From Gracilimonas mengyeensis (GTDB lineage: Bacteria; Bacteroidota; Rhodothermia; Balneolales; Balneolaceae): a stretch of 64,000 nt of DNA. The stretch spans positions 62,001 to 126,000 of the forward strand of contig NZ_FXTP01000009.1 of assembly GCF_900182705.1 (NCBI RefSeq), written 5' to 3'. Shown one piece after another: positions 46,370 through 57,913 of the stretch (the stretch's first letter is position 1; each line of letters begins with the position of its first letter). The position numbers were made by a program, and so were the translations under genes. The notes beneath the pieces are model-generated. The model did not search any database. It was not told where the DNA came from and worked only from the letters and a program-made list of their open reading frames with translations.

Positions 46370-46422
46370 GCCGGCTGTATCGATTTATGAGGAAAGAACG
46401 CCGGAAGATATTAAAAATGGAT

Positions 46423-46449
46423 GATATAGTGATATGGTGATTTAGTGAT
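46423..46449. repeat. Left inverted repeat of the four-helix-bundle unit
   Basis: 27 bases that match the right-hand repeat (46935-46961) in reverse complement at 25 positions. It is also the start of a four-fold 8-bp tandem array continuing to 46454 (GATATAGT, GATATGGT, GATTTAGT, GATATGGT). Confidence 0.85.
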
Positions 46450-46537
46450 ATGGTAGTGATAATGATTTTCAAAAATTCTTCGTAAGGAAGTGCTGTTTAT
46501 TTGCTCTTACTTTTGAATAATAAATCAAAAAATATCT

Positions 46538-46942
46538 ATGCAAAAATATGAAGAATGGGTAGAAGTAGTACCAAATGAGATAAGAAGTGATATTATCTGG
46601 AAAATAGAGGCTTATAAGTTTGCACTCTATTTGTATGATATTTGTTGGAATGATTCTGAGAAAATAATGGCAATTAGGAGATTCAGTTTAGCAGATCAGC
46701 TTTACCGTTCTGTCGGTTCCATAAGTGCAAATATAGCAGAAGGTTATTCCAGGATTTCAGATAAGGAAAAAGCGCGATTCTGCGAAATTGCATTAGGCTC
46801 AACCAGAGAAGCAAGGGACTGGTATTTTAAAAGCAGGCATATACTTGGCAATAGTGTGGTTCAAAAAAGGATAAGTATGCTTACTTCAATAGCAAAGTTA
46901 CTTCAGACTATGATTGTGGGGCATAGAGCCAGAAATCACTAA
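46538..46942 (+). CDS. Four-helix-bundle protein (23S rRNA intervening-sequence, S23-type family)
   Basis: 134 residues. The family signature LYRSVGSISANIAEGYSRISDKEKARFCEIALGSTREARDW is clear, and the protein is all-helical. Such proteins are encoded by intervening sequences in 23S rRNA genes of Leptospira and other bacteria, and also occur alone in Bacteroidota. They resemble the Avd accessory protein of diversity-generating retroelements; the biochemical role is unknown. The last codons (NH-stop) lie inside the right inverted repeat, so the gene end coincides with the element boundary. Flanking genes run the other way. Confidence 0.9.
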   Translation: MQKYEEWVEVVPNEIRSDIIWKIEAYKFALYLYDICWNDSEKIMAIRRFSLADQLYRSVGSISANIAEGYSRISDKEKARFCEIALGSTREARDWYFKSRHILGNSVVQKRISMLTSIAKLLQTMIVGHRARNH

Positions 46943-46961
46943 ATCAACATATTACTATATC
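46935..46961. repeat. Right inverted repeat of the four-helix-bundle unit
   Basis: Reverse complement of the left repeat with two mismatches. It contains the stop codon of the four-helix-bundle gene (46940-46942) and ends 6 bases before the thioesterase stop codon at 46968-46970. Confidence 0.85.
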
Positions 46962-46967
46962 ACCACA

Positions 46968-47399
46968 CTAATCAATCAACATCTCCTCCAGGTTTTTGAT
47001 ATCAGGCAACCGTGTAGGGCGCTGATTTTTCATATCAAACCATACGCCTGTTGTTTCGGCGACGCCCAGTAAGTCTTTGCTTTCTTTGTGATATAATCCC
47101 TGTTTTGCTGTGATGCTAGTATTGCCCACTTCACCGATGCCTGTGCCCACTAAAACCGTAGCAGGATATTTGATTTGTTTCAGGTATTCGATAGTAGATT
47201 TGACCAGCACAAAGGTTTTTCCATCGGTGAATTCACTTTGCATTTGCCCAACTTCGGCCAGGAACTTAATCCGGGCTTCTTCCAGGTAGGTGTTGAAAAG
47301 GGCATTGTTTACGTGATTGAGCGGATCCAGATCCCGGAAGCGTACGGGAATTTCGGTCCAGTGAAAGAAAAAGTCGGGGTCGTATTCGGGTCTAAACAT
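46968..47399 (-). CDS. Acyl-CoA thioesterase (4HBT hotdog fold)
   Basis: 143 residues. The motif VRFRDLDPLNHVNNALFNTYLEEARIKFL is the hallmark of 4-hydroxybenzoyl-CoA-thioesterase-like proteins, with the D-x-D-x-x-N-H-V-N-N segment carrying the catalytic aspartate. It would hydrolyse acyl-CoA or acyl-ACP; chain preference is unknown. Co-directional with the HD gene, which it would have followed closely before insertion of the 539-bp unit. Confidence 0.92.
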   Translation of the reverse strand: MFRPEYDPDFFFHWTEIPVRFRDLDPLNHVNNALFNTYLEEARIKFLAEVGQMQSEFTDGKTFVLVKSTIEYLKQIKYPATVLVGTGIGEVGNTSITAKQGLYHKESKDLLGVAETTGVWFDMKNQRPTRLPDIKNLEEMLID

Positions 47400-57824: not shown

Positions 57825-57913
57825 CTGTAGTAATTGGAAACGTTGAATTTTGGATTGTGAATGAGTTTTCAGGAAATAATAAATTTAAAATTCAACATTC
57901 CGAATTTAGCATT

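What the first reader, a model, noticed from the sequence alone, without database searches (positions are those of the whole stretch)
46423..46961. Four-helix-bundle gene packed between 27-bp inverted repeats: possible small mobile element outside rRNA
A plus-strand S23-type gene is bounded by 27-bp inverted repeats (25 of 27 matches) and sits between two minus-strand genes (HD hydrolase and thioesterase). Removing the unit would leave those two genes about 60 bases apart. The gene's stop codon lies inside the right repeat. The known home of such genes is the intervening sequence in 23S rRNA, which also ends in inverted repeats; here the same arrangement lies in an ordinary intergenic spacer. 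No transposase or target-site duplication is visible, so any mobility may be RNA-level or borrowed.
Basis: partly seen in the sequence, partly recalled or inferred. Interest (0 to 1): 0.75.

Follow-up and report, generated by a model that had tools for sequence, protein, structure and literature searches.

The report
S23-gene cassettes between matched heptad-repeat arms
A small gene of unknown function, known until now mainly from insertions in ribosomal RNA genes, turns out to sit in many bacterial genomes inside its own pair of mirror-image arms built from repeats spaced exactly 7 or 8 letters apart, with a different repeat 'word' for each gene subfamily, which points to an undescribed kind of mobile element and a possible job for this protein family.

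Summary
In detail: an S23-type (PF05635) gene at 46538-46942 lies between 28-nt inverted repeats (26/28) in a spacer that is otherwise about 57 bp. It is not a one-off. The genome has 11 such genes. In 98 copies from the order, 81% have flanking inverted repeats above the 95th percentile of mismatched flanks (about 5% expected). The arms are tandem arrays with a period of 7 (105/132 arms) or 8 (25/132). The unit sequence differs between loci but follows the protein subfamily even at unrelated loci. The rule also holds in Bacteroidota, Cyanobacteria, Gemmatimonadota and one 23S rRNA intervening sequence (Azospirillum). Orthologous spacers in relatives are empty, hold gene-less arrays of the same or another family, or hold the cassette inverted. 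At six sites, one of two sister species has a cassette and the other a different gene-less hairpin. No transposase is encoded, and 8 of 10 congeners have no reverse transcriptase. Best reading: a transposase-less mobile cassette, an S23 gene plus cognate heptad/octad arms. Solved S23 relatives have five chains and arrays usually hold 4-5 units, so I propose that a ring reads one unit per subunit on one strand. Movement itself and binding are inferred, not shown. I found no paper linking the two.

The parts
46417..46454 (+). left arm: tandem octamer array (GTGATATG/GTGATTTA type), G-rich on the gene's sense strand
   Evidence: inverted repeat 46422-46449; homology to the paralogue starts at 46417
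46482..46510 (+). 29-nt motif GTAAGGA..N..GCTCTTAC (short stem, fixed 19-nt spacing) upstream of the gene; function unknown
   Evidence: the same fixed-spacing motif upstream of 29 of 100 related genes, 1.6 expected
46538..46942 (+). S23-type four-helix-bundle gene (134 aa), PF05635 / TIGR02436
   Evidence: AlphaFold pLDDT 92.6, Foldseek best hits 2rld, 2gsc
46935..46971 (+). right arm: inverted copy of the octamer array; overlaps the stop codon
45107..46369 (-). flanking HD-domain hydrolase gene (host gene, not part of the element)
   Evidence: orthologous spacers read
46968..47399 (-). flanking 4HBT thioesterase gene (host gene, not part of the element)

Best explanation
The unit is a transposase-less mobile cassette made of an S23-family four-helix-bundle gene and a pair of inverted arms, each an array of about 4-5 short units spaced 7 (here 8) nt apart. 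Each protein subfamily has its own unit sequence, so protein and arms behave as a matched pair that spreads together, leaves gene-less hairpins, and turns over at intergenic sites. Proposed mechanism (inferred): the S23 protein forms a pentameric ring that reads one repeat unit per subunit on one strand of an arm (the G-rich strand, on the gene's sense side). The paired arms form a stem, as in 23S rRNA intervening sequences, which makes insertion into operons or rRNA tolerable because the stem can be cut out of the transcript. Copies arise when host replication or repair copies the arm-bounded hairpin into another array or spacer; the protein would supply specificity, not chemistry. Shown: gene-arm association, period, protein-unit matching, strand polarity, concerted change of the two arms, purifying selection on the gene, presence/absence and swap polymorphism. 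Not shown: binding, RNA excision, the movement step.
For: Association: 79/98 copies exceed the 95th percentile of mismatched flanks, displaced control 4.2%. In 78 named loci across Bacteroidota and beyond, 54% score >14 against 0/151 displaced controls. Period: 7 in 105/132 and 8 in 25/132 arms; 94/96 period 7 in the survey set. Matching: different-locus pairs with protein identity >=60% share arm 6-mers (Jaccard 0.14-0.19, n=29) against about 0.02 for distant pairs; Mantel r 0.30, maximum of 5000 permutations 0.11. Polarity: left arm G-rich in 59/65 copies, 21 of 25 distinct unit families. Concerted arms: same-locus orthologues under 65% protein identity have self inverted-repeat scores of 19 against 10-11 crossed, 37/37. 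Turnover: the home site in 9 congeners lacks the gene, mostly with gene-less octamer hairpins. nuoF-nuoG: cassette, remnant, 15-bp empty, or a different hairpin. Cassette inverted at the C1 paralogue's site in three congeners. Six cassette/other-hairpin swaps between two sisters. Selection: median dN/dS 0.08 (19 usable pairs). Ring: 2gsc and 2rld each have 5 chains and are the best fold matches; 62 of 89 arrays have 4 or 5 units. Breadth: cyanobacterial and Gemmatirosa plasmid copies, several inside operons, with arrays; Azospirillum copy inside LSU rRNA with period-7 arms.
Against: No transposition event, target-site duplication or perfect empty/filled pair was found; boundaries of swapped segments are ragged and reach the flanking ORFs. 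Some copies lack detectable arms (19/98; for example L055 and L057 in another family of the order). Many cassettes are old and inherited at one site (comM-priA and recN sites). The protein has no known catalytic site and nucleic-acid binding was not tested. The 4-5 unit count is a median of an approximate measure. The order-level copies are not phylogenetically independent.
Confidence: 0.7

Rival explanations
1. RNA-level intervening sequence: the arms matter only as a stem that RNase III cuts out of transcripts, as in 23S rRNA IVSs; the repeats are by-products of slippage in the stem.
For: The unit folds with both arms paired (z -2.56). One copy lies in 23S rRNA. 23S IVS excision by RNase III is shown for Coxiella (PMC4990558). 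Cassettes sit within operons.
Against: A stem alone does not require a 7/8-nt period, a unit sequence that follows the protein, or a G-rich left arm. Single-sided gene-less arrays also exist (L004, L006).
Confidence: 0.3
2. The arrays are binding sites of a global regulator or nucleoid-type protein (the S23 protein) and are kept for host regulation, not mobility. Paired arrays of four octa- or five heptanucleotide repeats in Geobacter were interpreted that way.
For: PMC2700814; gene-less arrays next to many genes in this genome; purifying selection on the gene.
Against: Array families at the same site are swapped between sister species, and 8-15 S23 genes with diverse units coexist per congener genome, neither expected of a conserved regulon.
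Confidence: 0.2
3. The cassettes are non-autonomous and moved in trans by a Y1 (RAYT) transposase, like REP elements.
For: Y1 genes occur in all 10 congeners. A RAYT element sits in place of the S23 gene at the comM-priA site in two congeners.
Against: Flanks of Y1 genes carry REP-like palindromes without a 7-nt period (autocorrelation near background in most, against 0.60 in S23 arms). Arms match the S23 subfamily.
Confidence: 0.08
4. Retroelement: the S23 protein works as an Avd-like partner of a reverse transcriptase acting in trans.
For: Avd is a structural relative (4dwl, 8ub7 hits; PF05635 resemblance noted in PMC10053308).
Against: 8 of 10 congeners carrying 8-15 cassettes each have no RVT_1 match, including both sister species with six swaps.
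Confidence: 0.05

Closest known systems
23S rRNA intervening sequences (IVS) encoding S23 protein
   Same: Same protein family, similar length, inverted ends that can form a stem; one rRNA-located copy (Azospirillum) has the same period-7 arms.
   Different: Here the cassette lies in ordinary spacers, in many copies per genome, with subfamily-specific repeat arrays and gene-less derivatives.
REP/REPIN elements with RAYT transposases
   Same: Dispersed short inverted repeats with a dedicated gene whose relatives carry cognate repeats at their flanks.
   Different: No HUH/Y1 transposase in the unit; the repeats are 7/8-nt tandem arrays, not palindromes; RAYT flanks in the same genomes look different.
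Geobacter paired heptanucleotide/octanucleotide repeat sites (PMC2700814)
   Same: Paired opposite-strand arrays of four octamers or five heptamers.
   Different: Described there as sites of an unidentified global regulator, with no link to S23 genes in the passages read.
Avd of diversity-generating retroelements
   Same: Four-helix-bundle fold related to PF05635.
   Different: No reverse transcriptase, template or variable repeat here; RT absent in most congeners.
MITEs / insertion sequences
   Same: Terminal inverted repeats, presence/absence between relatives, gene-less derivatives.
   Different: No transposase, no target-site duplication seen, arms are repeat arrays that change in concert.

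Membership tests
S23 / 23S_rRNA_IVP protein family (PF05635, TIGR02436) | profile match above curated cut-off | tested here: met
   64.7 bits against 33.8; 71.1 against 24
S23 / 23S_rRNA_IVP protein family (PF05635, TIGR02436) | four-helix bundle fold of the solved members | tested here: met
   AlphaFold pLDDT 92.6; best PDB matches 2rld and 2gsc, target-normalised TM about 0.8-0.9
S23 / 23S_rRNA_IVP protein family (PF05635, TIGR02436) | homopentamer | not testable with these tools
   relatives 2gsc and 2rld have 5 chains; oligomer of this protein not determined
23S rRNA intervening sequence | located inside an rRNA gene | tested here: not met
   window unit lies between HD and thioesterase genes
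23S rRNA intervening sequence | inverted ends able to pair around the unit | tested here: met
23S rRNA intervening sequence | excised from RNA by RNase III | not testable with these tools
   no RNA data
Insertion sequence / MITE | transposase in the unit or an IS with the same ends | tested here: not met
   only the S23 ORF lies between the arms; own-genome matches to the unit and arms, read around, were S23 copies and gene-less arrays
Insertion sequence / MITE | target-site duplication | tested here: inconclusive
   no clean empty/filled pair; ragged junctions
REP/RAYT | associated Y1 transposase with matching palindromes | tested here: not met
Diversity-generating retroelement | reverse transcriptase | tested here: not met
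   no RVT_1 in 8 of 10 congeners; one weak match in the own genome on another contig (C7)

The most novel reading that the evidence does not exclude
S23-family rings are the sequence-reading factors of a widespread, undescribed class of transposase-less selfish DNA. 23S rRNA intervening sequences, the intergenic octamer hairpins of Balneolota/Bacteroidota, cyanobacterial heptamer repeats and the Geobacter paired heptanucleotide sites would all be forms of it, with a one-unit-per-subunit code spaced 7 or 8 nt.
Probability: 0.45. Interest if true: 0.95.

Novelty: categorically new. Interest (0 to 1): 0.87.

Why it matters
S23 proteins have had no known function since they were found in rRNA intervening sequences, although they are common in environmental bacteria. 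The matched 7/8-nt arms give the family a directly testable ligand and explain why such genes turn up inside rRNA, CRISPR-cas operons and other operons. They also link the gene to classes of short repeats that have been described without a protein. If the ring reads one unit per subunit, the unit-protein pairs form a natural code for sequence recognition that could be worked out from genomes alone.

Tried and rejected
Same octamer around all copies: rejected, units differ by subfamily. Reverse transcriptase in trans: rejected for most congeners. RAYT mobilisation: flanks of Y1 genes differ. Rfam: no credible family on the elements (all hits were below gathering scores). Alignment-based scan of all genomes failed (no conserved stretch), so a single-subfamily query was used. 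Papers: none of 10 searches found the association; the library holds only open-licence papers.

Full report
WHAT IS THERE. A 134-aa PF05635/TIGR02436 gene lies between arms 46422-46449 and 46935-46962; its stop codon is inside the right arm; HD and thioesterase genes flank it. The only close paralogue found in the genome (C1:462579-463145, 70% DNA identity) is homologous over 46417-46971, so the copied unit ends at the outer edge of the arms.

A FAMILY-WIDE RULE. The genome has 11 PF05635 genes. Reading their flanks showed inverted repeats around essentially each one, but with different sequences. For 98 copies from the order, a local alignment of the 350-bp left flank against the reverse complement of the right flank exceeded the 95th percentile of mismatched flank pairs in 79 cases (81%); the control shifted by 700 bp gave 4.2%. 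For 78 named genome loci, mostly Bacteroidota and Balneolota with single Ignavibacteria, Chlorobi and Nitrospirales records, 54% scored above 14 against 0 of 151 shifted controls.

THE ARMS FOLLOW A SPACING CODE. The arms are tandem arrays. Self-match peaks at a period of 7 (0.60 against 0.32 shuffled); the best period is 7 in 105, 8 in 25 and other in 2 of 132 arms. In the survey set 94 of 96 arms have period 7, with a unit like AG-N5. Arrays usually hold 4-5 units (62 of 89). The left arm is G-rich on the gene's sense strand in 59 of 65 copies and in 21 of 25 distinct unit families (p = 9e-4). That polarity suggests that one strand is read, as RNA or single-stranded DNA (inference).

PROTEIN AND ARMS TRAVEL TOGETHER. 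After removing same-locus orthologues, pairs of copies with at least 60% protein identity share arm words (6-mer Jaccard 0.144 and 0.194 in two identity bins, 29 pairs) while pairs under 50% do not (about 0.02, about 2000 pairs); Mantel r is 0.30 and the largest of 5000 permutations is 0.11. At the same locus, when the protein has diverged below 65% identity, left and right arms still match each other (score 19) but not those of the orthologue (10-11) in 37 of 37 pairs. Some of these may be replacements, but the comM-priA site shows arms that change in concert while staying paired.

TURNOVER AT FIXED SITES. At the window's own site, nine congeners lack the gene. Most carry a gene-less inverted array there, two have almost none, and several other genera of the family have spacers of only 10-26 bp. 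Two sister species (G001, G007) differ there by whole 8-nt units in both arms. At nuoF-nuoG there are cassettes (G000, G006), a remnant (G008), a 15-bp empty spacer (G001, G007) and a different gene-less hairpin (G004, G005). At the C1 paralogue's site the cassette is inverted relative to the neighbours in G003, G005 and G007. Between the sisters, at six sites one has a cassette and the other a gene-less inverted array of another family. Gene-less arrays of three families that have a cognate gene here are dispersed in the own genome. The direction of these changes and the mechanism are not known.

BREADTH. Plasmid-borne S23 genes in Cyanobacteria sit inside operons: between ribonucleotide reductase subunits in Nostoc edaphicum, between cas6 and cas4 in Pseudanabaena and Anabaena, between cas10 and a cmr3-family gene in Picosynechococcus. 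Most have inverted arrays of period 7, a few of period 8 or without clear arms. A Gemmatirosa copy has them too. In Azospirillum lipoferum the copy lies inside the 23S rRNA gene (LSU_rRNA_bacteria spans it) and its arms are also period-7. One rRNA case is a lead and not a rule. An own-genome copy also sits between cas4-like and cas1-like genes (named from the sequence), consistent with a published note that such genes occur in cas loci (PMC3936711).

WHAT MOVES IT. No transposase is in the unit. Eight of ten congeners have no reverse transcriptase match, which argues against an Avd-like retroelement even though the fold is related. Y1 transposases are present in all congeners, but their flanks carry palindromes without the 7-nt period. 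The gene is under purifying selection (median dN/dS 0.08 in 19 usable pairs; many dS saturated). The solved relatives 2gsc and 2rld have five chains each and are the best structural matches to the model. I therefore propose a pentameric ring reading about five units, one per subunit, comparable in logic to the TRAP ring (from general knowledge), with host replication or repair doing the copying. Binding and copying are untested.

PRIOR KNOWLEDGE. S23 genes in 23S IVSs are known (PMC4990558). Paired octa- and heptanucleotide arrays were described in Geobacter as sites of an unidentified global regulator (PMC2700814). None of ten searches of the held library found the two linked; subscription papers are not covered.

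LIMITS. Copies in the order are related; arms were chosen by inverted-repeat score (not by period) for the period and Mantel tests; gene-less arrays were not counted genome-wide; no experiment shows movement.

Noticed in passing
window 46482-46510 and upstream of 28 other S23 genes: 29-nt motif GTAAGGAnTTnnnTTTTnATnGCTCTTAC with a fixed 19-nt spacing between GTAAG and CTTAC, in 29 of 100 upstream regions (1.6 expected), inside or outside the arm; nearly absent from the wider survey (1 of 78).
   Followed up: partly
window 57882-57913: gene-less array of the AATTTTGAATG type (own-genome hit C9:119882-119913; read as L298), same family as the arms of the recN-site cassette.
   Followed up: partly
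L016 (G000 C5:32196-32501): S23 cassette between cas4-like and cas1-like genes, with a Y1/RAYT-like gene just upstream (identified from the sequence only).
   Followed up: no
L179, L184 (comM-priA site in G003, G004): RAYT element in the place where other congeners have an S23 cassette; in G003 remnants of a 7-nt array flank it.
   Followed up: partly
L345 (G001, site of L111): at the site of an S23 cassette in G007, the sister species carries a longer, different insert.
   Followed up: no
L295 (G000 C2:246174): arrays of at least three different unit families lie head to tail (CAGTGAT-, CAGAACT- and AATTCAA-type), as if new arrays land in old ones.
   Followed up: no
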